A DNA stretch of 41,989 nt from a virus. Of the stretch, positions 1,945 through 37,948 are shown in pieces. A model generated the notes under the pieces. That model was not told the origin of the DNA. It was given only the letters and a program-made list of their open reading frames with translations, and did not search any database. The stretch is from the IMG/VR virus record IMGVR_UViG_3300036780_000106, positions 1 to 41,989 of that record, one strand, 5' to 3'. Every line of letters begins with the position of its first letter. The first letter of the stretch is position 1. Made by a program: the position numbers and the translations under genes.

Positions 1945-4900
1945 ATGGCGACAACACCGGTCACCCTCGACTTCGGAAAAGCAATCGCGATCGGCGACCC
2001 GGCAGACGCGCAGGCCTCCGCGCTGCAGGGCGCCATCGCGTACGGCTCGACGCAGGATCCCGACGCCTACGCGGGCCTGCTCAAGCTGCAGAAGCAGACG
2101 GGCGTGCCTCCCGCGGTGTCGAGCGGGAACCAGCAGCAGGTGCGCCAAGCGGCCGAGGTCAACGCGATCGATTACCGTGGATTCGCGGTGAGCCATCCGC
2201 GGACCACGGCCTGGGCTTCAAACCCGGACAACGCCGCGGTATCAGGCGCCGACGAAGTGCAGCGGCTGGCTGGGATCGAGGGGAACGCCGGCGTGATGCG
2301 GGCGGCGACGCCGTGGGAGGCATTCAGCAACAAATACCTCTACCCGATCCAGCAGAAGCTGATGGAGTACCCAGGTACCCGGATGGCCGTGGACGCCGTG
2401 GCGGGATCCGCCGGGATGGTTGGCGACGTAGGCTCGTTTCTCGGCTGGCACGGCGCCAACCAGACCAAGCAGAACCTGCTGCAGCGAATCGAATCGAATT
2501 TGGACGTCTCCCAGGCCAACATCTGGGAGAACGGAGAACAGGACAAAGGGAACGGGGTGGACTGGCTGGCGAAGAACCTCGCGCCGATGATCCCGGCGGT
2601 CCTGGCCACCGGCGGTACCAGCCTGCTGGCGCGCACGCTAGGTCTGAGCGGCGCCGCGGCGAAGGTGCTGAGCGGGCTCACCGTGGGAGCGATGTTCGAT
2701 ACGCAGCAGGCGGGCAAGACCTACACGGCAGTGGCCGGGTCTGGCGGAAGCGATTATGCGGCGCGGCTGGCGGCGAATCGGGTAGCGGCAATCGGGGCGC
2801 TCCCGAACGCCCTGTTCGGAGCCACCGACGTTCTCCCGCTATTGCGCGATAATCCGCTGCTGACCTCTCTCGGCCTTGGAGGCGCAACCGGCGCCGCCGG
2901 GCAGCTGGGCCAGAACGTGGCGACGGGTCAGCCCTGGCAAAAGGGCCTGGCGCCCGCCGCCGTCCAGGGCGCGGCCATGATGGGCGGCATGCACATCGGC
3001 ATGGGAGCGTTCGGCGGCAGCATGAGCGACGCGGTCGACGCGGCCGAGCAATCGAAGCTGCGAGAGCGCTCGCCCGAGAAGTTCAACGAGGCGATGCAGT
3101 CAATCTTCGCAGGCGATCAGAGTCTGCGCATTCCGGTCGATCAGTTCAACGGTTACTTCAAGGGCAAGGGCGCCGACCCATCCACGGTCGCCTCCGCGCT
3201 CGGATCGGCCAACTACGCGGCGGCTCATCTTTCGGGCGGCGAGGTGGAGATCCCGCCGGCCGAGTACCTGTCGAAGCTGGAGCCGGAAGACCAGAAGGCG
3301 CTGCTCCAACACATTGTGGACCCATCCACGGGCCTGACGGGGCGGCAGCACCAGGAAGGCCTCGCAGAGCTCGAACAATGGGCCACAGGGGGCGGCGCGC
3401 AAAAGCTGGCGGAGGATGCGGCCGCGGCGGACGCGGAGACGGCCGCGACGCCGGAATACCAGGCGGTGAAAGAGGACCTGCGGCAGCGCTACACGGACGC
3501 GGGCGAGACGCCCCTGGCTGCGGAAACGACCGCGGCCGCGGGCGCGAGAGATATCGGCAACCTCGCGGCAAATTTCCAGATGAAGCCCACGGAAGTCCTG
3601 GCGATGTTCAACCCTAAGGTGGTGCGAGGGGAAGCGCCGGAGGGGCAGCGAAACGTTGTGCCGTCGCCGTCGATTTCCGCTTCGGAAGCGTCTGGCAGTG
3701 TACCTGAGCGGGAAGCGGGGAATCAAAGTTCGCCTGCGCAGAAAGGCTCGGCGACGGCACCCGAACAGGCTACGCCGGTAACTATCGCGCGTCAACTTGT
3801 AAAAGCTGGCCATCCCTATTGGGACAGCACCTCGGACGCTTTCGCCACCAACGCGGCAATACAAACCGAACTTCAGAAGACAGGGCTGCCCAGCGGCAGG
3901 AAGACCGCTGCGTTCAAGGCCGTGAAAGACGAAATCGCCCGCATAGGGTCGGAGCGCAAAGCGGGCTACGAAGCCAGGAGAAGGGCGTCGCCAGAATACC
4001 GAGCCGCGGCAGAAGAGGCGCGGCGGCTGCACGATGACGCCTGGGATGAAATGTCCCCCGATGAACAAACAGAAGCAACCGAAGGGGAATACCGGAGGGC
4101 ACAGAACGAGTCCGAGGCCGAGCAAAAGAAGCAGGAGGAAAGCGAGGAATGGGAGCGCGAGTTACACCGTCGCGTCGCCTACATGGATGCGAAGCAGGCC
4201 CAGGTTGAAGAGCTGCTCGACAAGCAGGGCGTGAAGTACGCGTCGAGGGGCTCCTCTACTTATTCCCGTTACCTCACGATCGAACAGCCCGATGGGGGGA
4301 CCGCGAAGATTCGCATCAGCGACCACGAGCCCCCAACCGGCGTGCGCGGCGGCTATGTGGGCGGATACAACGAGGCGACCGGGGAACGCTACGACGCGCC
4401 CGACCTCTCGCTGCACCCGGGGGACGACGCAATTGATAAAGTACGCGACCTAATCGGCGCGGCGACTCCGGACGAGATGAGGCCCTACGACGTGGCCCGC
4501 GTGCCGCTCGACCAGCTGCATCTCGACCCGAAACGCTTCCAGTACAAGATGAACACCGACGCCGGCGGGGTGACCAACCTGCTGAAAGGGCAGGCCTGGA
4601 ATGAGGACAACGCAGGCGTCATCAGCGTGTGGCGCGATCCGGACGACGGCAAGACTTACGTGGTGAACGGCCATCATCGCTACCAGCTGGCAAAGGAAAC
4701 GGGGCAAAGCGACGTCGCGGTGCGCATGATCGGGGCCGACAACGCGGCCGAGGCGAGAGCGAAGGGCGCAAGGCAGAATATCGCCGAGGGCCGCGGCACG
4801 GCGATGGACGCGGCAAAGTTCTTCCGCGATTCCAACTATTCGCAGGCAGACCTGAAGGGCCTCGGAATCAGCATGGGCGAGGCCACCGCCGCGAACGGCG

Positions 4901-7900
4901 TGGCGCTGGCGCGCTTGCATCCCGGCCTGTTCGATCAAGTGGTAAACGGCAAGGTTGCGGAAGGCCGCGCGGTTGCGATCGGGAACGCGACGGGCGATCC
5001 GGAGGAGCAGGAAGCGATCCTGAAGCTGATCGACAAGGCCGAATCGAAAGGGAAGCACGTCACCAACGAAACGGTGAACGAGCTGGCCAGGATGGTCAAG
5101 GGCGCGGGGCAGCATGCCGAGACCCAGAACACGCTGTTCGGCGCGCAGGAAACGACACACTCCCTGGCGCTCGAAAAAGCCGAGGTGTCGAGTTACATCC
5201 GCAAAACGATCGGTGAGGAGCAGCGCACCTTCGCCGGGGTTGCCGACGAGAAGAGGGCCGCGCAGCTGGGCGGCGTCGAAGGGCAGACCATCAACGCGGC
5301 GAAGAACGGCGAGATCGCCGGCGATGCCGCGATCGCCAAAGAAATGTACGACCGGCTGAGCGTGCGCAGTGGTACGGTGGATGAAATACTCAACCGCGCA
5401 GCCCGCGAGATCGCGGAAGGAAAGAAGCCAAATGACGTCAAAGCCAAAGCCTACGCAGACACCAGAGACGCCCTTCGAGAAGCTCTCGCCGGAGCAGATA
5501 GCGTCCGTGGAGGAATGGGCGGAGAGAACGAAGGCCGACCTGCGGGCGGCAAGCCAGGATCGGCAGATGCAAGCACCGCCTCCGATGTCCTAAGCCTCTT
5601 TCAGACCCGCGGCGAAGACCAGCAGCCTCGCGGATGGATCCGCATCCTTCCCGACGGGTCGGTCGAAGTCGGCAAGACCAAGATCGGCAACGAGAGCACG
5701 GACCTGCACGAGCTGCTCGGGCACGGCTACCTGATCTCGCTCAACCGTCTCTTCAAGGCCCACGGCGACCTGGCCAGCGAAACAGTCAAAGCCGACCGTC
5801 AGACCATCCTCGACTTCCTGGGCGCGAAAGACCTGGACTCGCTCACCCGGGAGCAGCACGAGCGGTTTGCGGACGCAACCCTCCAATACCTGCGCGAAGG
5901 CAAGGTTCCGAATCCGGAGCTGCGGGGCGTCTTCCAGCGCATAGCGGTCTGGCTGCAATCTATTTTCAAGAAGGCTTCCGACCTCGGGGCAGAGATCTCT
6001 CCGGAGCTGCGCGGCGTCATGGACCGGCGCTTTGCCGCGGATAATGCGCTCAACAGGGCGGAGACGGAAGCCGGCCCAAAGCTGTTCGCCAGTCCCGAGG
6101 AGGCTGGCTGGACCGAGGAGCAATTCCAGAAATACGCGGCCGACAACAACATGAGCGCAGAGCAGGCCAGGGCCGACCTGGTGGGCAGGCTGAACGAGGC
6201 GGCGGTACGCGCGCGATCCGAATCGTGGCGCGAGGAAGAGCGCAACGTCCGCGAGGCGGTGACGGCCCAGGTAGACCAGAGGCCCGATTACTCCGCGATC
6301 CGCTCGCTGCGCAGGGGCACACTCGACGACGGGACCGAGCTCGCCCTGGGGCGCGAGGATCTGGTGAAGCAGTTCGGCGAGGACCGCGTGAAGGCGCTGC
6401 AGGCACAGCACCGAGGACTCTACCGCAACGAGGGAGGCGAGGATCCGGAGATCGTGGCTGAAGTGTTCGGATTCAACTCGGCGGCGGAGATGCTCAAGGC
6501 GATTGAAACCGCGCCGCGGCGCTCGGCGGCGATTGAGACGGCGACGCGCGAATACATGACGGCGAAGCACGGCGACATCCGCTACGACGGCACGCTCGAC
6601 GACCAGGCGCGGATCGCGCTCGAGAACGACAACCGCGCGGAAGGGCTGCACGCGGAGCTGATCGCGCTCAAACAGAAGATTGCCGGCATGGCCGGACAGC
6701 GCGACGCGCTGCGCGCGATTGAAGTCGCCCCCATCGCCAGCTACCGCGAAGCCGCGCAGCAGATGGTCGAAAAGAAATCGCCGGCGGACCTGCAGCCGAC
6801 GCGCTACCTCGACGCCAGCCGCAGATACTCGCGCGAGGCCTTCGAGGCGCTGCAGAAAGGCGATGCGCAGGCGGCGGCCGAGGCGAAGCACAAAGAGCTG
6901 ATGAACCACTTCCTCTTTCGCGAGGCAAGCGCGGCCAGGGATTATTTAGAAAACAAGTTTGAGCCGTACGTGAAGCGGACGCTGAAGCCGGCGGCGCAAT
7001 CGAAGCTGGGACTGGCCGGCGGCGACTACCGCGACCAGGTCAACTGGATCCTGGCGCGCTACGCGCTGGGGCCGCAGGTGGCGCGGCCCGAGAGATCGCT
7101 GGGAGAATGGGCGGCGTCCAAGTACGACCAGGGCAAGGAGCCGGCGATCGATCCGGCCATCCTGGATGAGTCGCGCACGATCAACTACCGCAATGCGCCC
7201 ATCTCCGAAATCCGCCGGGTGCACGACGCGCTGGTCAACGTCCGCAAGCTGGCATCGCTCGAGTTGGGAATGGAAGTAAACGGCAAGCGGATCGAATTCT
7301 CGGCGGCCGTGGCCAACATGGACGCCCAGGCGCGCGAGACGCTGCCGTCGAAGCCGACGCGGGTGCTGAAGGGCAACGCCACGCTGGGGGAGAGGTTCGC
7401 AGACTACGCGGAGCGCGGAGACGCACTTCTGATGCGCACCGAGCGCCTGATGGAGTGGTGGGATGGCGGCAAATCCGGCCCCTGGCACGAGAATCTCTGG
7501 AACCTGGCCGCCGATGCGCAGGGCAACGAGTACAAGCTGCAGGAGCAGGTAACCAAGGCGCTGGGGGACGCGCTCGAGCGCATCCCCAAAGAGCAGCGCG
7601 CAAAAATGCTGGACAAGGTGAGCGTGGACGGGATCCCCGAAACCGTAACCCGGCACGACCTGATCTCCATGGCGTTCAACATGGGCAACGAGGGCAACCT
7701 CGACCGCTTGACCAAAACCTTCATCGCCCACGGCTGGGATCCGGACGCGATCGAGCGGATCAAAGGGATGCTCACGCGGGACGAGTGGCAGTTTGTGCAG
7801 GACGGCTGGGACTCGCTGAAGCCTCTGGGGAAGGCGCAGTCGGAGCTGGAGAGGCGGCTCACGGGACTGCCTCCCGTGATGGTGACGCCGACGCCGCTGC

Positions 7901-9342
7901 GCCTGGGGCTGCGGGACGGGACCATGGACGTGGCCGGGGGATATTACCCGGTAGTGATGGATCCACGCTACTCGGCTCGCGGGGCGCAGCAGGATGCCGG
8001 CACGAGCGCGCAGAACCTGATGGAGGCCGGCTACGGCCGCGCCGCCACGTCGCGCGGAAACATGAAGGCGCGTACCGGATTCGGAGGCCCGCTGCTGCTC
8101 GACTACGAGCAGGTATTGACCCAGCACACGGCGAAGGTGATCAAGGACATCACTCACCGCGAGTTTATGCTGGTGGCCAACAAGCTGCTGCTCGACCCCC
8201 AGCTCCGGCTCGCGATGCGCGAGACGCTGGGAGAAGGGTATGAAGAGAAGATGATGCCGTGGCTGCGCACGATTGTGAACGACCGCAACGGCAGCGCGGT
8301 GCAGGGACTGAGCGACTTCTCAAGAGCGCTGAGGGCGCTGCGCACCAACCTGACGCTGGCCACGCTCTCCTACAAGATCTCGACGTCGCTCCTGCAGTGG
8401 ACGCACGCGCCGCGCATGCTGCTGAGCGCCAACCCAGGGTCCTACGCGCAGGCTATGGTGGACTTCCTCGCTCACCCGGCGGAGATGACCCAGCAGATCA
8501 AGGACCTCTCGCCGAACGAGATGGCCTCGCGCGGCGACAACCTCGACCGCGATATTCGCGCGGCGCTCAAGGGCGACCCCGGCATCCAGCGCAGCATGGC
8601 GCGGGTGGGCAACGTCTCGATTAAGTACACCGACCACATCCTGAGTTTCCCGCTGTGGCTATCGGTCTACCGCGACGCGCTGAAGGAGCACGTGGGGCTG
8701 ACCGAAGACAAGGCACAGAACCTGGCCATGCACGCCGCCGACAGCGCGGTGCGGCTCGGGCTTGGCTCGGGGGCGCCGAAGGATCTGCCGCCGATCATGC
8801 GCGGCAACGATGGGGCCAAGCTGATCACGATGTTTTACTCCTTCCACAACGGCATCTACGGCCAGGTGCGCGACATCGGGCACCAGTTCCGCCAGACGCA
8901 CAACGTGGCCAAGCTCAGTTACGGCCTGGCGCTGTCGGTGCTGGCGCCGGCGCTGCTGGGCGCGCTGGTCAGCGGGAATGGCCCGAAGGACGGCGAGAAC
9001 AAGGGATTATGGGCGGCCAAGCGGGCGCTGCTGTTCAGCGCGGACACGGTACCCCTGCTGCGCGACGCAGCCTCGGCCCTCGATAGCGACGGTGAGATAA
9101 AGAACCCGCTCTTCAACATGGCCAGCAAGGCTACGAAGGCGACGCAGGAAATGATGAGCGAGAGCGACGACAAGGATTGGCGCGGCGTCGGCCTGAGCTA
9201 CCTGGAGGTGGCCGGAGACCTGGCCGGCGTGCCTGGCACGACGCAGGCGATGAAGCCGATGCGGTACATGAACCAGGTACAGAAAGGGAACGTCGACAAC
9301 CCCAACGTGTGGGACGCGGTGGCGGGATCAGCGCGCCACTAA
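1945..9342 (+). CDS. Giant polyvalent ejection protein (ParB/Srx-like and zincin-like domains)
   Basis: A 2465-residue protein starting immediately after the previous stop. Residues about 120-370 hold Gly/Ala-rich hydrophobic stretches that could insert in membranes. Residues about 845-955 form a ParB/sulfiredoxin-like domain with the signature NGHHRYQLA at 908-916. Around 1253-1340 an HELLGH motif (H1255, E1256, H1260) sits in a zincin-like segment followed by a YLREGK helix. The C-terminal third has the helical texture of large polyvalent phage proteins and a hydrophobic segment near 2324-2345. Such proteins are packaged in the capsid and injected with DNA (compare T7 gp16), and can carry enzymes or antirestriction activities for early infection. 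The role is inferred from family and position; the enzymatic activity is not proven. Confidence 0.8.
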   Translation: MATTPVTLDFGKAIAIGDPADAQASALQGAIAYGSTQDPDAYAGLLKLQKQTGVPPAVSSGNQQQVRQAAEVNAIDYRGFAVSHPRTTAWASNPDNAAVSGADEVQRLAGIEGNAGVMRAATPWEAFSNKYLYPIQQKLMEYPGTRMAVDAVAGSAGMVGDVGSFLGWHGANQTKQNLLQRIESNLDVSQANIWENGEQDKGNGVDWLAKNLAPMIPAVLATGGTSLLARTLGLSGAAAKVLSGLTVGAMFDTQQAGKTYTAVAGSGGSDYAARLAANRVAAIGALPNALFGATDVLPLLRDNPLLTSLGLGGATGAAGQLGQNVATGQPWQKGLAPAAVQGAAMMGGMHIGMGAFGGSMSDAVDAAEQSKLRERSPEKFNEAMQSIFAGDQSLRIPVDQFNGYFKGKGADPSTVASALGSANYAAAHLSGGEVEIPPAEYLSKLEPEDQKALLQHIVDPSTGLTGRQHQEGLAELEQWATGGGAQKLAEDAAAADAETAATPEYQAVKEDLRQRYTDAGETPLAAETTAAAGARDIGNLAANFQMKPTEVLAMFNPKVVRGEAPEGQRNVVPSPSISASEASGSVPEREAGNQSSPAQKGSATAPEQATPVTIARQLVKAGHPYWDSTSDAFATNAAIQTELQKTGLPSGRKTAAFKAVKDEIARIGSERKAGYEARRRASPEYRAAAEEARRLHDDAWDEMSPDEQTEATEGEYRRAQNESEAEQKKQEESEEWERELHRRVAYMDAKQAQVEELLDKQGVKYASRGSSTYSRYLTIEQPDGGTAKIRISDHEPPTGVRGGYVGGYNEATGERYDAPDLSLHPGDDAIDKVRDLIGAATPDEMRPYDVARVPLDQLHLDPKRFQYKMNTDAGGVTNLLKGQAWNEDNAGVISVWRDPDDGKTYVVNGHHRYQLAKETGQSDVAVRMIGADNAAEARAKGARQNIAEGRGTAMDAAKFFRDSNYSQADLKGLGISMGEATAANGVALARLHPGLFDQVVNGKVAEGRAVAIGNATGDPEEQEAILKLIDKAESKGKHVTNETVNELARMVKGAGQHAETQNTLFGAQETTHSLALEKAEVSSYIRKTIGEEQRTFAGVADEKRAAQLGGVEGQTINAAKNGEIAGDAAIAKEMYDRLSVRSGTVDEILNRAAREIAEGKKPNDVKAKAYADTRDALREALAGADSVRGGMGGENEGRPAGGKPGSADASTASDVLSLFQTRGEDQQPRGWIRILPDGSVEVGKTKIGNESTDLHELLGHGYLISLNRLFKAHGDLASETVKADRQTILDFLGAKDLDSLTREQHERFADATLQYLREGKVPNPELRGVFQRIAVWLQSIFKKASDLGAEISPELRGVMDRRFAADNALNRAETEAGPKLFASPEEAGWTEEQFQKYAADNNMSAEQARADLVGRLNEAAVRARSESWREEERNVREAVTAQVDQRPDYSAIRSLRRGTLDDGTELALGREDLVKQFGEDRVKALQAQHRGLYRNEGGEDPEIVAEVFGFNSAAEMLKAIETAPRRSAAIETATREYMTAKHGDIRYDGTLDDQARIALENDNRAEGLHAELIALKQKIAGMAGQRDALRAIEVAPIASYREAAQQMVEKKSPADLQPTRYLDASRRYSREAFEALQKGDAQAAAEAKHKELMNHFLFREASAARDYLENKFEPYVKRTLKPAAQSKLGLAGGDYRDQVNWILARYALGPQVARPERSLGEWAASKYDQGKEPAIDPAILDESRTINYRNAPISEIRRVHDALVNVRKLASLELGMEVNGKRIEFSAAVANMDAQARETLPSKPTRVLKGNATLGERFADYAERGDALLMRTERLMEWWDGGKSGPWHENLWNLAADAQGNEYKLQEQVTKALGDALERIPKEQRAKMLDKVSVDGIPETVTRHDLISMAFNMGNEGNLDRLTKTFIAHGWDPDAIERIKGMLTRDEWQFVQDGWDSLKPLGKAQSELERRLTGLPPVMVTPTPLRLGLRDGTMDVAGGYYPVVMDPRYSARGAQQDAGTSAQNLMEAGYGRAATSRGNMKARTGFGGPLLLDYEQVLTQHTAKVIKDITHREFMLVANKLLLDPQLRLAMRETLGEGYEEKMMPWLRTIVNDRNGSAVQGLSDFSRALRALRTNLTLATLSYKISTSLLQWTHAPRMLLSANPGSYAQAMVDFLAHPAEMTQQIKDLSPNEMASRGDNLDRDIRAALKGDPGIQRSMARVGNVSIKYTDHILSFPLWLSVYRDALKEHVGLTEDKAQNLAMHAADSAVRLGLGSGAPKDLPPIMRGNDGAKLITMFYSFHNGIYGQVRDIGHQFRQTHNVAKLSYGLALSVLAPALLGALVSGNGPKDGENKGLWAAKRALLFSADTVPLLRDAASALDSDGEIKNPLFNMASKATKATQEMMSESDDKDWRGVGLSYLEVAGDLAGVPGTTQAMKPMRYMNQVQKGNVDNPNVWDAVAGSARH
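2367..2381 (+). repeat. Outlying partition-type repeat AGTACCCAGGTACCC
   Basis: This site inside the giant gene shares 14 identical bases (AGTACCCAGGTACC) with the site directly upstream of parA. The other copies cluster around the partition genes near 22-23 kb. It may be a distant centromere or operator site, or a coincidence of codon choice (it encodes part of EYPGTR). Confidence 0.35.
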
Positions 9343-20467: not shown

Positions 20468-20494
20468 ATGCCAATCTTGCGAAGGTCCAAATGA
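20468..20494 (+). CDS. Possible 8-residue leader peptide
   Basis: An ATG preceded by AAGGA (20458-20462) opens the peptide MPILRRSK. Its TGA overlaps the replication-gene ATG (AATGA). This arrangement could couple translation of the initiator to the leader. Too short to be sure. Confidence 0.25.
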   Translation: MPILRRSK

Positions 20495-21996
20495 CGGCCG
20501 CTCCCCAGGCGACGCGGCGCAATGAGCGAAAACCGCGCCACGGCTGGTTCGATTACGAGGTCCTGGATGTTTTCGGGGATGAGCTCGGCCCTTACGGAAT
20601 CACCGTTTACACGGTGCTGGCGCGCCTTTGCTACGGCGGCTTCCGGGTGACCATGGGGCTCCGTGAGCTGGCGGCACACGCCCGGATGAAAAAGGACTCG
20701 CTGGCGCGGACGCTGAAGCGGATGATCGAGCTGGGGCTCGTGGTCGAACAAAAGGGCCGCACCGGGAAGTCCGTATCGAGCTACGACCTCACCGATGTTA
20801 AAGATCTGGTGGAGCAAATGAGGGCGCTGGCGAGGGAGCGCGCGGCCAGCGCCTCATCTGTCTCTGACAGCGACAGAAGCACCGAGGGCTCCGCTGGGAG
20901 CCCCGAGGAGAAGCCGGAGGCGTCCGTGCCGCCAGATCGCCAAGCCCAGGGCGGCGATGCCGCAGCGGGCACGCACGGCGGCGCGGAGGGCACCGCAGAG
21001 CTTGAGGCCTCCGATGTGGCAGTTGAGGCGGACGCAGACTGTCTCCCACAGCGACAGATGGAAGCCGAGGGCGCGGAGGCTGTGCAAAACGCGGTGGGAG
21101 GGCCAGAAACGGGCGTGGCCAGAGAGACAGATCTGTCGCAAAACGGGCCCCGATTTGAGACACATCTGTCGCAATCAGCCTCGCGCGTTAATTGGCAAGA
21201 AGGTAGTAAGCAACGAAGTAATAAAAACACACCCCCCCTACCCCCCCTACCCCCCCCGGGGGGTGTGAAAGAAAACCTGCATTCACGCGAGGCCGCCCCG
21301 GACGGAACCCAGGACGAGACCCGATGGGCCAGCTTCATCGCGGAGCTGAAGCGGGAGATGTGCGACGAGATGCCGATCGGCGTGGAACTGGCGAAGCACT
21401 GGAAAGAGCTACACCGCGGCCAGAGCGATTTCAAAAGCTGCTTCGGCGCTTGGTGGCTGCTCGAAGTCGAACGCGGGACGCAGGCGCCATGCGCGATTTT
21501 CTCAACCTACGCCGCCGACGAAGCGGCGACCCAGGCCGGAATCGCGAAGTACGAGAAGCGGCTCAAGCGGCTGCTGCGCCGGTTCTTCGCGCTGGCGAAG
21601 GACACGCCAATAGAGTTTTTGAAGGTGCTGCGCTCGGAGGAGCGGACGCCAGGGGAGGCGGAGCGAAAGCAGCCGGCGGTCAACGGCGAAATACCCGAAG
21701 GCGACCGCGAGGCGTGGATGGAAGTGCAGCGGCTGGCGAAGGAGCACCTGGCCAAGCTCGCAAAGGTGAACCCAGCCATCAAGCTCGAGTGGATCCACGA
21801 GGGAGTGGAACCCGCGCAACTGGAGTCGGTCGAGAGCGTGAATGGCGGGCGGGTGTGGAAGCTGCGATCGCCGGCGCCGGCCACGACGCGCGTGGTGATG
21901 GAGCTGCTGAAGGAGCCCGTGCTGCGCAGGGTCGCCGCCGGCGTGCGGATCGAGATCGCTCCGGAGCCAGGAGCGCCCAAGTACCCAGGTACCTAA
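20491..21996 (+). CDS. Replication initiator (lambda O-like layout)
   Basis: 501 residues. Residues about 15-110 form a winged helix-turn-helix (YGITVYTVLARLCYGGFRV, then GLRELAAHARMKKDSLARTL). A long disordered linker (about 115-270) is encoded by DNA containing candidate origin iterons and C-tracts. The C-terminal part (about 275-501) is helical and may contact the host helicase machinery. DNA-binding N-terminus, origin inside the gene and position first after the rightward early promoter are as in lambda O. GAAGG lies 7 bases before the ATG. No helicase or polymerase gene is seen, so replication would rely on host enzymes. Name not assigned because the family match is by layout only. Confidence 0.65.
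   Translation: MTAAPQATRRNERKPRHGWFDYEVLDVFGDELGPYGITVYTVLARLCYGGFRVTMGLRELAAHARMKKDSLARTLKRMIELGLVVEQKGRTGKSVSSYDLTDVKDLVEQMRALARERAASASSVSDSDRSTEGSAGSPEEKPEASVPPDRQAQGGDAAAGTHGGAEGTAELEASDVAVEADADCLPQRQMEAEGAEAVQNAVGGPETGVARETDLSQNGPRFETHLSQSASRVNWQEGSKQRSNKNTPPLPPLPPPGGVKENLHSREAAPDGTQDETRWASFIAELKREMCDEMPIGVELAKHWKELHRGQSDFKSCFGAWWLLEVERGTQAPCAIFSTYAADEAATQAGIAKYEKRLKRLLRRFFALAKDTPIEFLKVLRSEERTPGEAERKQPAVNGEIPEGDREAWMEVQRLAKEHLAKLAKVNPAIKLEWIHEGVEPAQLESVESVNGGRVWKLRSPAPATTRVVMELLKEPVLRRVAAGVRIEIAPEPGAPKYPGT
20855..21230 (+). repeat. Candidate origin: ATCTGTCGC iterons plus AT-rich stretch
   Basis: Copies: CATCTGTC (20855-20862), inverted GCGACAGA (20870-20877), inverted GCGACAGATG (21051-21060), palindrome GACAGATCTGTC followed by GCA (21126-21140), and ATCTGTCGCAA (21164-21174). 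Copies in opposite orientation encode different residues, so protein repetition does not explain them. An AT-rich patch (21187-21230) follows, as an unwinding element would. This matches the lambda-type origin inside an initiator gene. Confidence 0.5.
21228..21267. repeat. C-tract array with 10-bp inverted repeat inside the initiator gene
   Basis: Three C-tracts of 7, 7 and 8 separated by TA, then six G. CACACCCCCC (21228-21237) and GGGGGGTGTG (21258-21267) are perfect inverted repeats. The minus strand reads like a telomeric (TAGGGGGGG) array able to form a G-quadruplex. The reading frame stays open (PPLPPLPPPGG). Confidence 0.6.
21979..21994 (+). repeat. Partition-type repeat upstream of parA
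   Basis: AAGTACCCAGGTACCT lies 27 bases before the parA ATG and overlaps the end of the initiator gene. A likely centromere half site or autoregulatory operator for the partition pair. Confidence 0.55.
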
Positions 21997-22020: not shown

Positions 22021-22641
22021 ATGATCATCACCGTAGCGAGCTACAAAGGCGGGGTGGGAAAGACCACGACGGCGGTGCACCTGGCCGCCTATCTCCAGAG
22101 CCTGGGGCCGGCGCTGCTGCTCGATGGCGACCAGACACGCAACGCCACGGCGTGGTCGGAGCGCGGCGACGGGTTCCCATTCCGAGTGGCGCCGATTGAC
22201 CAGGCCGCGAAGCTGGCGCGCCACTTCCGGCACATCGTGATCGACACCGGGCAGCGGCCGAGCGGCGATGACCTGAAGGCCGCGGCGGAGGGGTGCGATC
22301 TGCTGGTGGTGCCGACCATTCCCGGCGCGCTCGAGACGGACGGGCTGGGACAGACGGTGCGGGCGCTGCAGGGCGTCAACGCATTCTTCCGCGTCCTGCT
22401 GACCTCGGTGCCTCCCGACGCGGCGAAGGAAGCGGCCGAGCTGCGCAGCCTGCTGGCAGCGGCGCACGCCCCGGTGTTCGAGTGCGAGATTCCGCGGCTG
22501 AAGGCTTTCAAGAAGGCCGCGGGCGCCGGCTGCATCGTGTGGCAGGCGAGGGATCGCGAGGCCGCGCGGGCCTGGGCGTGTTGCGAGGCTGTCGGGCGGC
22601 AACTGAGGGCGATCGAGTTGAAGATGGCGGTGCGGGCATGA
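22021..22641 (+). CDS. parA: ParA-type partition ATPase
   Basis: 206 residues. The deviant Walker A is KGGVGKTTT (9-17), the A' motif is LLLDGDQT (32-39) and the Walker B is HIVIDTG (about 71-77), as in the small ParA/MinD-like ATPases. No N-terminal HTH is present, which is the type Ib layout, where the small partner protein does the DNA binding. The ribosome-binding site GGAAGGAGGAG is very strong. It overlaps the downstream partner by ATGA. Role: ATP-dependent segregation of a low-copy replicon, suggesting an extrachromosomal prophage phase or segregation of replicating phage. Confidence 0.88.
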   Translation: MIITVASYKGGVGKTTTAVHLAAYLQSLGPALLLDGDQTRNATAWSERGDGFPFRVAPIDQAAKLARHFRHIVIDTGQRPSGDDLKAAAEGCDLLVVPTIPGALETDGLGQTVRALQGVNAFFRVLLTSVPPDAAKEAAELRSLLAAAHAPVFECEIPRLKAFKKAAGAGCIVWQARDREAARAWACCEAVGRQLRAIELKMAVRA

Positions 22642-32120: not shown

Positions 32121-32557
32121 GCGCCCTCACGGTGCAGGCACGAGTCGGGGCGACGAGCGTGGAGCTGCTGCAGACGATTCGGACCTTCGAAACCGCGGCG
32201 ATGAACGCCGCGCAGGCTCACGTCGAGATGGAGCACCTGCTGCACGGTGGCATGTACTCGAGGACCGCGCGGGTCAAGGCGGGAACGGTGATCACGGGAG
32301 CGCTGATCAAGCGCGCCACCGTGCTGATCGTCCAGGGCGACGCGCTGATGCTGATGAACGGCGGATTCGCCGAATTGAGCGGGTACAACGTGTTCGCGGC
32401 TTCAGCGGGGCGCAAGCAGGTATTCGTTGCCCGCGGCGACGTGACCATCACGATGATCTTCCCCAGCGCAGGCACGACTGTGCAGGACGCCGAAGCCGAA
32501 TTCACCGATGAAACCGACCTGCTGCTGACGCGCCGCGAAGGGGAGCCGAGAGCATGA
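32117..32557 (+). CDS. Conserved phage protein, cupin-like
   Basis: 146 residues from a TTG overlapping the previous stop (TTGA). 'HLLHGGMYSRTARVKAGTVI' then TGALIKRATVLIVQGDALML and AGRKQVFVARGDVTITMIF give a beta-barrel pattern of cupin type. The last part (AEAEFTDETDLLLTRR) is a strongly conserved tail in relatives near head genes. No catalytic claim. Coupled to both neighbours. Confidence 0.65.
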   Translation: MSALTVQARVGATSVELLQTIRTFETAAMNAAQAHVEMEHLLHGGMYSRTARVKAGTVITGALIKRATVLIVQGDALMLMNGGFAELSGYNVFAASAGRKQVFVARGDVTITMIFPSAGTTVQDAEAEFTDETDLLLTRREGEPRA

Positions 32558-33167: not shown

Positions 33168-34868
33168 ATGCCAGATAACAACCAGAGCCGCCAGCAGGCG
33201 ATCCTGCGCTGGGGGCAGCTCAAGACGGAGCGGTCGAGCTGGTGGACGCACTGGCAGGAAATCACCACCTACCTGCTGCCGCGCAACGGGCGCTACTTCC
33301 GCCAGGACCGCGACAAGGGCAACCGGCGCGACAAGAACATTTACGACAACACCGGCATCCGCGCGCTGCGCACGCTGGGAGCGGGGCTCATGGCCGGCGC
33401 CACGTCGCCGGCGCGGCCGTGGTTCCGGCTGGGGACGCCGGATCCGGACCTGAACGACTTTCAACCGGTAAAGCTGTGGCTCGACGACGTCTCGAAGCGC
33501 ATGCACATGATCTTCCAGAAGTCGAACACCTATCGGGCGCTGCACCAGATGTACGAGGAGCTGGGCGCGTTCGGGACGGCCTCATCCATCATCCTTCCCG
33601 ACTTCCAGAACGTGATCCACAATTACCCGCTAACAATCGGGGAGTATGCGATCGCCACGAACGCCCAGGGCAACGTGTGCACGCTCTACCGAGAGTTCGA
33701 GATGCCGGTCTCCGCGATGGTCAAAGAGTTCGGGTCCGCCAACTGCTCGAGCACCGTCCGCTCTCTGTACGACTCGGGCAAGGGCCTGGACCAGTGGATC
33801 CCGGTCATCCATGCGATCGAGCCCAGAGCCGACCGCGACCCAGCGCGGAAGAACGCACGCAACATGGCCTGGAGATCCATCTATTTTGAGTTGAGCGGAG
33901 ACTCGAGCCTCCTGCTGCGCGAAAGCGGGTTTTTGCAGTTTCCCGCGGTGTGCCCGCGCTGGGCGGTCGCCGGCGGCGATATCTACGGGAATTCGCCGGG
34001 CATGGAAGCCCTGGGCGACATCAAGCAGCTGCAGCACGAGCAGCTGCGCAAGGCCAACGCGATCGATTACCAGAGCAACCCGCCCCTGCAGGTGCCAACC
34101 TCCATGAAGAACCAGGACGTGAACCGTCTGCCCGGCGGGATCACGTACATGGACCCCGGCGCCGGCGGCGCGGAGATCAAGACGGCGTTCGACGTGCACC
34201 TGGATCTTGAGGACTTGCTCGCCGACATTCGCGACTGCCGCGCGCGCATCAACTCGGCGTTCTTCGCGGACATGTTCCTGATGCTCGACTCGAACACCGG
34301 CCCGCAAATGACGGCGACCGAAGTGGCGGAGCGCCACGAAGAGAAGATGCTGATGATCGGCCCGGTGCTGGAGCGCATCTCGAACGAGCTGCTCTACCCG
34401 CTGGTTGAAACAACTTTCACGCACATGCTGGAAGCGGGTCTTGTGCCCCCGCCGCCGCCGGACATGCAGGGACAATCGCTGAACATCGAGCTGATCGGAA
34501 TACTGGCGCAGGCGCAGCGCGCGATCGGCACCAACTCCATCGATCGCTTTGTACAGCAGATGGGCGTGGTGGCGCAGGCGAAGCCTGAGGTGCTGGACAA
34601 CTTCGATCCGGATCAGTGGGCGGACATTTACAGCGACAGCCTGGGCGTGGATCCGAAGCTGATCGTGGCTTCTAGCCAGGTGGCTATGGTCCGGCAGGCG
34701 CGCGCCAAGGCACAGGCCGCGCAGGCACAGGCCGCCGCCGCGCAGCAGCAGTCGCAGACGGCGAAGAACCTGGCGCAGTCGCCAACGCAGGGCGGCCGGT
34801 CGAACGGGCTCCAGGACATGATGAACCAATACAGCGGCTACGGCTCGCCTTCGGGCGCCGAGGTCTAA
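33168..34868 (+). CDS. Portal (head-to-tail connecting) protein
   Basis: 566 residues. N-terminus with 'WGQLKTERSSWWTHWQEITT' and YLLPRNGRYF, and body motifs LGAGLMAGATSPARPWFRLG and FGTASSIIL, are characteristic of head-tail connector portals of podoviruses. The dodecameric ring forms the packaging and ejection channel. C-terminal ~60 residues are Ala/Gln-rich. Three pieces of this gene (33439-33489, 33537-33601, 34801-34841) are repeated in the next gene. Confidence 0.93.
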   Translation: MPDNNQSRQQAILRWGQLKTERSSWWTHWQEITTYLLPRNGRYFRQDRDKGNRRDKNIYDNTGIRALRTLGAGLMAGATSPARPWFRLGTPDPDLNDFQPVKLWLDDVSKRMHMIFQKSNTYRALHQMYEELGAFGTASSIILPDFQNVIHNYPLTIGEYAIATNAQGNVCTLYREFEMPVSAMVKEFGSANCSSTVRSLYDSGKGLDQWIPVIHAIEPRADRDPARKNARNMAWRSIYFELSGDSSLLLRESGFLQFPAVCPRWAVAGGDIYGNSPGMEALGDIKQLQHEQLRKANAIDYQSNPPLQVPTSMKNQDVNRLPGGITYMDPGAGGAEIKTAFDVHLDLEDLLADIRDCRARINSAFFADMFLMLDSNTGPQMTATEVAERHEEKMLMIGPVLERISNELLYPLVETTFTHMLEAGLVPPPPPDMQGQSLNIELIGILAQAQRAIGTNSIDRFVQQMGVVAQAKPEVLDNFDPDQWADIYSDSLGVDPKLIVASSQVAMVRQARAKAQAAQAQAAAAQQQSQTAKNLAQSPTQGGRSNGLQDMMNQYSGYGSPSGAEV

Positions 34869-34882
34869 GGGAGGCAGGCGCG

Positions 34883-35275
34883 ATGGTCGACATGAAGATG
34901 AGCAAGGCCGAGGCGAAAGAGCAGTGCACGCCATCGGATCCGGACCTGAACGACTTTCAACCGGTAAAGCTGTGGCTCGGCGACGCGCTGCACCAGATGT
35001 ACGAGGAGCTGGGCGCGTTCGGGACGGCCTCATCCATCATCCTTCCCGAACGGGCTCCAGGACATGATGAACCAATACAGCGGCTACCGGGCATCGGCGA
35101 CGACGTGAACCTGGGCGACGAGGTCGCGATCACGGCCAAGGCGACGGTGACCTCGAAGAGCGGCTACCAGACGATGATGGGCGACTCGGAGATGAGCCTC
35201 TCGCTGCAGATCACCGACATGGAAGTGAGCGGCGGATCGAGCAAGTCGGCGAAGGCCCTCTACGACAAATCCTGA
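34883..35275 (+). CDS. Capsid-staple-like protein with portal-derived insert
   Basis: 130 residues. The N-terminus MVDMKMSKAEAKEQCTP and the C-terminal part GDEVAITAKATVTSKSGYQ and SLSLQITDMEVSG match the ends of a small family adjacent to portal genes whose members I recall as capsid staple proteins. The normal middle is absent; instead 51 codons (34935-35087) are copied from the portal gene. Blocks A and B keep the portal frame and block C is read in another. GGGAGG lies before the ATG. The frame is intact, but folding and function are doubtful. An assembly artefact has to be excluded. Confidence 0.6.
   Translation: MVDMKMSKAEAKEQCTPSDPDLNDFQPVKLWLGDALHQMYEELGAFGTASSIILPERAPGHDEPIQRLPGIGDDVNLGDEVAITAKATVTSKSGYQTMMGDSEMSLSLQITDMEVSGGSSKSAKALYDKS
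34935..35087 (+). repeat. 153-bp compressed copy of portal-gene segments
   Basis: Block A 34935-34985 equals 33439-33489 with one mismatch. Block B 34985-35049 equals 33537-33601 exactly. Block C 35047-35087 equals 34801-34841 exactly. The order is as in the portal gene, as if a duplicate lost 33490-33536 and 33602-34800. The B/C junction has 3 bases of microhomology. Confidence 0.9.
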
Positions 35276-35292: not shown

Positions 35293-35308
35293 AGGCTTGG
35301 CGCGCCGC

Positions 35309-35665
35309 ATGATCGGCATTGTGCAACCCTACGATCCAACCGACCTCAAGGGGCAGGAGGCGGAGCGGGACGACAAAGCGACCCGGCTCCGCCTTTTGGC
35401 CGAAGTGGAACAGCTGGATGTGAAGTGGCTTATGGGCTCGAAGCGCGGCCGCAGGATCGTGTGGCGGCTTTTGGAGCAGGCGGTGGTTTTCAAGGCGACG
35501 TTCGACACCAATGCACTGCGCATGGCGTTCAACGAGGGCAAGCGGTTCTTCGGCACCCGCACCCTGGACCTGATCCACACATCCTGCCCCGAGCTGTACG
35601 CGCTGATGTTGAAGGAGTCGAACGATGGCAGTAGAAGCGACGGTAACGGCAACAACTACAACTGA
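35309..35665 (+). CDS. Bbp19-like phage protein
   Basis: 118 residues from ATG 35309; a TTG four codons earlier is possible. 'VKWLMGSKRGRRIVWRLLEQ', AFNEGKRFFGTRTLDLI and CPELYALMLKE fit the Bbp19-like family of BPP-1-type phages. No good ribosome-binding site is seen. It overlaps the scaffold gene by 41 bases, so the C-terminal residues may be dispensable. Role unknown, expected in head morphogenesis. Confidence 0.7.
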   Translation: MIGIVQPYDPTDLKGQEAERDDKATRLRLLAEVEQLDVKWLMGSKRGRRIVWRLLEQAVVFKATFDTNALRMAFNEGKRFFGTRTLDLIHTSCPELYALMLKESNDGSRSDGNGNNYN

Positions 35666-37504: not shown

Positions 37505-37948
37505 ATGCCCATGCTCGATTCCGAAAACGTATTCGCCGCGGCACAGTCGACCGCGGCCTTCAACATCGGCGACAACCCTAGCACGAACAGCTACGACACA
37601 GGCTCGGCCAACGCAAGCGAGGCCGCGCAGACCAGCGAAAACCTCTGGCTGCAGATTGTCTGCAACACGCTGTTCGCGGGCGCAACCGCAACCGTACAGG
37701 GGGTGCTGCAGACCTCTCCGGACAACGCGACCTGGACGGACTCTGTGGCCGGCAAAGCCCTGCTCGCCACGGGCGTCACGGTGGGCCAGGCGCTGCTCCA
37801 GGTGCAGCCTCCGACCGGCACGCAGCGGTACTGGCGCACCATCATCCGGGTAGCGGTGGCGAACCTTTCCGCCGGCGCGATCGACAGCTACATCTCGAAC
37901 GTTCTGCAGTACAACGTCCAGCGGCCGAGCGGCTTCACGGTCGCCTAA
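37505..37948 (+). CDS. Bbp16-like capsid decoration protein
   Basis: 147 residues, beta-rich (SENLWLQIVCNTLFAGATAT; QRYWRTIIRVAVANLSAGAI). Sequence pattern and position right after the capsid fit the Bbp16-like cement/decoration proteins of BPP-1-type phages. The ATG is preceded by GGGAG. About 100 bases separate it from the capsid gene and hold a hairpin. Trimeric capsid stabilisation is the inferred role. Confidence 0.72.
   Translation: MPMLDSENVFAAAQSTAAFNIGDNPSTNSYDTGSANASEAAQTSENLWLQIVCNTLFAGATATVQGVLQTSPDNATWTDSVAGKALLATGVTVGQALLQVQPPTGTQRYWRTIIRVAVANLSAGAIDSYISNVLQYNVQRPSGFTVA

What the first reader, a model, noticed from the sequence alone, without database searches (positions are those of the whole stretch)
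34935..35087. Staple-like gene whose middle was replaced by a collage of portal-gene DNA
Exactly 153 bp (51 codons) inside the gene after the portal consist of three portal segments in original order (A 51 bp with one mismatch, B 65 bp, C 41 bp, overlapping by 1 and 3 bases). The reading frame stays open and both ends still look like a capsid-staple-type protein. It looks like a tandem duplicate that shrank by two deletions, or template switching, and created a chimeric protein with part of the portal read in a new frame. The near-perfect identity implies a recent event.
Basis: partly seen in the sequence, partly recalled or inferred. Interest (0 to 1): 0.8.

Follow-up and report, generated by a model that had tools for sequence, protein, structure and literature searches.

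The report
Phage gene patched with portal-gene fragments
In this phage a small gene of unknown function has lost its most conserved stretch and carries instead three recent copies of pieces of the portal gene next door, most likely the scar of a local DNA duplication that was then trimmed by deletions; it is a clean rearrangement fossil that probably broke the gene, not a new capsid 'staple'.

Summary
Window 34935-35087 consists of three segments of the adjacent portal gene, on the same strand and in order (51 nt with one mismatch, 65 nt, 41 nt). They are by far the longest repeats in the window. Relatives carry the uninterrupted 102-103 aa gene: 23 codons containing the invariant YPxGLxIxLDDDxLxKLG block were replaced by 51 codons. 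The fragments match this phage's own portal (156/157) far better than relatives' portals do, so the event is recent. No other contig shows it.

The interpretation needs two corrections. First, segments A and B are read in the portal's own frame; only C is in a new frame. Second, the gene is not a capsid staple. It belongs to the epsilon15-gp10/Bbp20 family, whose staple assignment was revised in 2022: a 130-aa protein fits the density, and that length matches gp8, the Bbp16 homologue. This phage has an intact Bbp16/gp8 homologue at 37505-37948.

Best explanation: a ~1.5 kb tandem duplication followed by three deletions (or an equivalent slipped template). It sits in an indel-prone slot between portal and bbp19 and probably inactivated a dispensable gene. 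The open frame is near chance expectation (~0.19). A library artefact cannot be excluded without reads.

The parts
34883..35275 (+). Chimeric bbp20/epsilon15-gp10-family gene (130 aa); own residues 1-18 and ~70-130 retained
   Evidence: PF21628 31.2 bits (cut-off 27) but only profile 42-96 of 98, against 16-96 in L005; phrog_825 E 2.3e-8; relatives 102-103 aa
34935..34985 (+). Collage segment A = portal 33439-33489, one mismatch at 34980; read in portal frame
34985..35049 (+). Collage segment B = portal 33537-33601, 65/65; read in portal frame
35047..35087 (+). Collage segment C = portal 34801-34841, 41/41; read in a different frame from the portal
33168..34868 (+). Portal (head-tail connector) gene, intact; donor of all three segments
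   Evidence: PF12236 E 3e-182; phrog_332; 80-86% aa identity to L005-L008
33439..33489 (+). Donor of A
33537..33601 (+). Donor of B
34801..34841 (+). Donor of C
35297..35665 (+). bbp19 homologue; right-hand border of the indel-prone slot portal-bbp19
   Evidence: PF25181 Phage_Bbp19 E 2e-13; slot lengths
37505..37948 (+). Intact Bbp16/epsilon15-gp8 homologue: the likely real capsid cement ('staple') protein of this phage
   Evidence: PDB 3j4u_H cementing protein E 7.6e-8; BLASTP to Bbp16 3e-13 and to epsilon15 gp8 9e-8

Best explanation
A genuine, recent illegitimate rearrangement of the phage's own DNA. The sequence needs one backward jump (from codon 18 of the bbp20-like gene back 1,496 bp into the portal gene) and then three forward jumps (48 bp, 1,202 bp, about 160 bp), all on one strand. 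The most economical history is a ~1.5 kb tandem duplication of portal plus the start of bbp20, which leaves one intact copy of both genes and so is viable. Three deletions then trimmed the redundant DNA, and the last one ran into bbp20 and removed its 23-codon conserved core. Slippage of one replicating strand along the same template in a single event would give the same four joins. The 130-aa product most likely no longer performs the Bbp20/gp10 function (itself unknown); the gene lies in a slot that relatives repeatedly gain and lose, and the capsid cement role is carried by the intact Bbp16/gp8 homologue. Shown: segments, order, strand, donor, replaced block, absence in relatives. Inferred: duplication intermediate, loss of function.
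For: Same strand, original order, all from within 1.5 kb upstream. Three randomly picked patches would be same-strand and in order about 1 time in 48 (my arithmetic). Segments match the window's own portal 156/157, while relatives' portals differ from it by 8-25% in A and B and 10-31% in C, so it is self-derived and recent. Joins overlap by only ~0-3 bases and no longer bridging template stands out from random positions, so the joins are illegitimate, not homologous. Tandem duplication occurs in this phage group: L006 carries a 450-bp exact tandem copy in its tail-fibre-like (bbp23) region. The portal-bbp19 slot is an indel hotspot, 33 bp to 2.7 kb long; L019, with 84% portal and 89% MCP identity, has a 620-aa ORF there and no bbp20 on the stretch held. 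The replaced block holds invariant Y, P, G, L, L, L and G positions. AlphaFold2: relative pLDDT 71, chimera 59, with collage residues at about 40-50. Random portal collages are open 56% of the time, so open and in frame is ~0.19 by chance.
Against: No intermediate (full or partial duplication) and no uninterrupted near-identical sibling was found. The frame is preserved, which a purely broken gene need not do. pN/pS of the retained part (0.48 against L005) is only mildly above the portal (0.22) and like bbp19 (0.45), so decay is not shown. Reads were not available.
Confidence: 0.6

Rival explanations
1. One-step templated patch: a replication fork or single-stranded portal fragments annealed at the bbp20 gene and switched template several times, replacing 69 bp by 153 bp in one event, with no duplication intermediate.
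For: Very short overlaps at all joins; the only substitution, at 34980, lies 5 bases from the A/B join, as expected of error-prone joining.
Against: All three patches are same-strand and in order, which duplication-deletion predicts and independent patches do not. No recombinase or annealing protein was recognised among the window proteins scanned, but many have no family.
Confidence: 0.25
2. Assembly or library artefact: chimeric molecules in the metagenome library were built into the contig.
For: Single virus record of IMG/VR type; no second contig has either internal join; the collage length (153 bp) is close to a short-read length.
Against: Overlaps of 1-3 bases are far below any assembly k-mer, so graph collapse cannot make these joins. 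153 bp plus flanks exceeds one ~150-base read, so several chimeric reads would have to agree (inference). One collage-specific substitution suggests an independent history. The frame is kept.
Confidence: 0.13
3. Functional innovation: the chimera is expressed and selected, with portal-derived peptides giving the protein a new contact or replacing the lost core.
For: Open frame; A and B keep the portal's own frame (about 35 portal residues); both gene ends keep strong similarity to the family.
Against: Resemblance of the collage to the lost block is at chance level (P 0.08-0.67 for DNA, 0.10-0.51 for protein); the fold prediction is poor in the collage; openness is expected ~1 in 5 by chance.
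Confidence: 0.07

Closest known systems
Bbp20 of Bordetella phage BPP-1 / epsilon15 111-aa gp10 (PF21628 Gp10-like, phrog_825)
   Same: Same gene slot (portal - bbp20 - bbp19 - protease - MCP - cement protein) as in BPP-1; retained C-terminal half matches Bbp20 at 39%, E 2e-7, and gp10, E 2e-5; the intact relative L005 matches 3j40_N at 5e-8 and the family profile at 2e-19.
   Different: The window protein lacks the invariant YPxGLxIxLDDDxLxKLG block and has 51 portal-derived codons instead.
Capsid cement/'staple' protein: BPP-1 Bbp16, epsilon15 gp8 (130 aa)
   Same: Encoded intact in the same operon at 37505-37948.
   Different: Not homologous to the collaged gene. The name 'staple' came to gp10 through an assignment later judged wrong (PMC9207676).
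Tandem duplication followed by deletion; templated insertions by illegitimate recombination (general knowledge; no directly matching phage paper found)
   Same: Same-strand, ordered, nearby donor; 0-3 base overlaps; recent identity.
   Different: Three fragments retained inside one small open gene, with replacement of that gene's core; no flanking duplication left.

Membership tests
Bbp20 / epsilon15 gp10 family (PF21628, phrog_825) | Profile match above curated cut-off | tested here: met
   31.2 bits against 27, but only profile 42-96/98; relatives 56-62 bits over nearly the full length
Bbp20 / epsilon15 gp10 family (PF21628, phrog_825) | Conserved block YPxGLxIxL..xLxKLG | tested here: not met
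   Replaced by the collage in the window; invariant Y25 P26 G28 L29 L33 L41 G42 in 18 relatives
Bbp20 / epsilon15 gp10 family (PF21628, phrog_825) | Slot between portal and bbp19 | tested here: met
Capsid staple/cement protein (Bbp16, epsilon15 gp8) | Sequence similarity to Bbp16/gp8 | tested here: not met
   Family-level test: Bbp16 against gp10 and gp8 against Bbp20 give no match; the real homologue is 37505-37948
Capsid staple/cement protein (Bbp16, epsilon15 gp8) | Presence of the product on the capsid surface | not testable with these tools
   Needs virion proteomics or cryo-EM; in BPP-1 the abundant cement protein is Bbp16 (PMC3863775)
Tandem duplication with later deletions | Donor segments on the same strand, in order, from adjacent DNA | tested here: met
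Tandem duplication with later deletions | Surviving duplicated flank or an intermediate in a sibling | tested here: not met
   No other repeat >20 nt in the window; no sibling found. This is a trace that can be lost, so it lowers but does not exclude the history.

The most novel reading that the evidence does not exclude
The chimera is a newborn functional protein: a phage replaced the core of a small virion-operon gene by in-frame portal peptides, and the product is expressed and useful, for example as a portal-interface mimic in head assembly.
Probability: 0.06. Interest if true: 0.7.

Novelty: new member of a known kind. Interest (0 to 1): 0.3.

Why it matters
It is an unusually clean snapshot of how neighbouring-gene DNA can be pasted into a small phage gene while the frame stays open, with donor, order, joins and lost ancestral block all readable. 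It also exposes an annotation trap: genes matching epsilon15 gp10 / PF21628 are read as capsid 'staples' although that assignment has been revised, and the real cement protein (Bbp16/gp8 type) is another gene in the same operon.

Tried and rejected
Second copy of the collage or its joins in viral contigs: A/B join pattern, one chance hit only, in an unrelated sequence (L017); B/C join none. Uninterrupted near-identical sibling: none. Genome collection: only two weak partial matches. Older, diverged portal fragments downstream of the portal in ~55 related loci: no convincing case; short hits in L007/L045 (15 nt) and L023 (33 nt, 82%) were not pursued. The window's own row in that scan was not a valid positive control, because its portal coordinates were merged with the collage; one search serves instead. 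Collage as mimic of the lost block: chance level. Extra bridging template at the A/B join: 12-nt matches at 32336, 6701 and 3745 are within the range seen at random positions. Structure search with both models: no significant match. Diversity-generating mechanism: not pursued, since the fragments are near-exact ordered copies, not mutagenised. Literature on short-patch illegitimate recombination: nothing relevant held.

Full report
Observation. Three segments of the portal gene (33168-34868) recur in the next gene: A 33439-33489 at 34935-34985 (50/51), B 33537-33601 at 34985-35049 (65/65) and C 34801-34841 at 35047-35087 (41/41), overlapping by 1 and 3 bases and adding up to 153 bp. They are the longest exact repeats of the whole window (65, 45, 41; next 20) and far beyond chance. 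The finding's coordinates and counts are correct.

What was replaced. Intact relatives (L005, L006, L007, L008, L012, L013) encode 102-103 aa. Aligned to them, the window keeps codons 1-18 and the C-terminal ~61 codons; 23 codons in between (L005: TDESPRYPYGLSINLDDDALAKL) are gone and 51 collage codons stand there. The lost block and the residue next to it hold 7 of the 12 invariant columns of the family alignment.

Frame. The offsets are 1496 (A), 1448 (B) and 246 (C). A to B is a 48-nt step, and both are read in the portal's own frame. B to C is 1,202 nt and shifts the frame; C is read as ERAPGHDEPIQRLP instead of the portal's SNGLQDMMNQYSGY. The net length change (+28 codons) restores the gene's frame. 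Random ordered portal collages of the same sizes are open 56% of the time, so an open and in-phase outcome is expected about once in five (0.56/3). The open frame is therefore weak evidence of selection.

Recency and donor. The relatives' portals differ from the window's by 8-25% within A and B (29% in the more distant L023) and by 10-31% within C; the collage differs by one base. The donor is this lineage's own portal, and the event postdates its split from every relative found.

Which gene it is. The retained half matches PF21628 Gp10-like and phrog_825; intact relatives match PDB 3j40_N, epsilon15 gp10, and BPP-1 Bbp20. This is where the label 'staple' comes from. But a 2022 re-analysis (PMC9207676) concluded that the 111-aa gp10 sequence was wrongly assigned to the staple density (map-model correlation 0.10) and that a 130-aa protein fits (0.61, 0.81 refined). 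The epsilon15 record gives gp8 exactly 130 aa and annotates it as similar to BPP-1's cement protein Bbp16; equating the paper's 130-aa protein with gp8 is my inference from the length and that annotation. In BPP-1, Bbp16 is the abundant cement protein and is essential (PMC3863775). The window encodes an intact Bbp16/gp8 homologue at 37505-37948. The collaged gene is therefore a Bbp20-type gene of unknown function, not the staple. A 2025 epsilon15 paper still uses gp10 as the staple (PMC12391199), so the naming is not settled in the literature.

Tolerance to change. The interval between portal and bbp19 ranges from 33 bp to 2.7 kb among relatives. L018 has an extra 197-aa ORF there, L019 a 620-aa ORF and no bbp20 on the stretch held, and L024 has neither. 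L019's MCP fragment is 89% identical to the window's. The gene thus seems to be dispensable or replaceable in close kin, although L019 and L024 are partial contigs.

Mechanism. The sequence is explained by one backward jump of 1,496 bp and three forward jumps (48, 1,202 and about 160 bp; the last is inferred from relatives). A tandem duplication leaves both genes intact in one copy, so it is viable, and shrinking such a duplication by deletions automatically gives same-strand, ordered pieces. Independent patches would give that about 1 time in 48. A single slipped-strand event gives the same joins and cannot be distinguished. The joins carry ~0-3 shared bases and no longer bridging template stands out. 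Tandem duplication does appear in the group: L006 has a 450-bp exact tandem copy.

Consequence. AlphaFold2 with the same relatives gives the intact relative a mean pLDDT of 71 and the chimera 59, with the collage at about 40-50 while the C-terminal hairpin stays at 84-89. Neither model matches a solved structure significantly. The collage does not resemble the lost block beyond chance. pN/pS in the retained part is 0.48 against L005, above the portal (0.22) and MCP (0.14) but like bbp19 (0.45): inconclusive. I conclude probable loss of the original function, not shown.

Artefact. The window is a single virus record; neither internal join nor a near-identical sibling was found elsewhere (very near records may be left out by the tool). 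Overlaps of 1-3 bases exclude k-mer collapse, and one short read could not carry the collage plus both flanks, so an artefact would need several agreeing chimeric molecules. Reads are needed to close this.

Verdict. Real with high probability, recent, self-derived; an instructive but ordinary kind of rearrangement in a gene whose 'staple' label is out of date.

Noticed in passing
window 37505-37948; L064 6971-7363 and 7705-8040: Annotation trap: PF21628/3j40 'gp10' matches are named as coat/staple proteins, but the epsilon15 staple density was re-assigned to a 130-aa protein (PMC9207676), whose length matches gp8 (Bbp16 type). The window carries both families.
   Followed up: yes
L006 1703-2152 and 2151-2600 (same DNA as L044 1915-2364 and 2363-2812): Exact 450-bp tandem duplication (period 448) in the region of the tail-fibre-like bbp23 gene upstream of the portal; real recent duplication or assembly effect not decided.
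   Followed up: partly
L019 5202-7064: A 620-aa ORF with a signal-peptide-like start and no PHROG match sits in the slot where relatives have bbp20.
   Followed up: partly
L018 5211-5804: A 197-aa ORF with a signal-peptide-like start is inserted between portal and bbp20; its start resembles that of the L019 insert (MKKxIL...).
   Followed up: no
window 22021-22641 and 20491-21996: ParA-like partition protein (phrog_164, E 4e-26) and a weak replication-initiator match (E 7e-4): possible plasmid-like lysogeny.
   Followed up: no
window 1945-9342: 2,465-aa protein with phrog_9880 (E 8e-244) and an odd match of residues 846-1180 to phrog_21 'portal protein' (E 4e-68), although the real portal is at 33168.
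   Followed up: no
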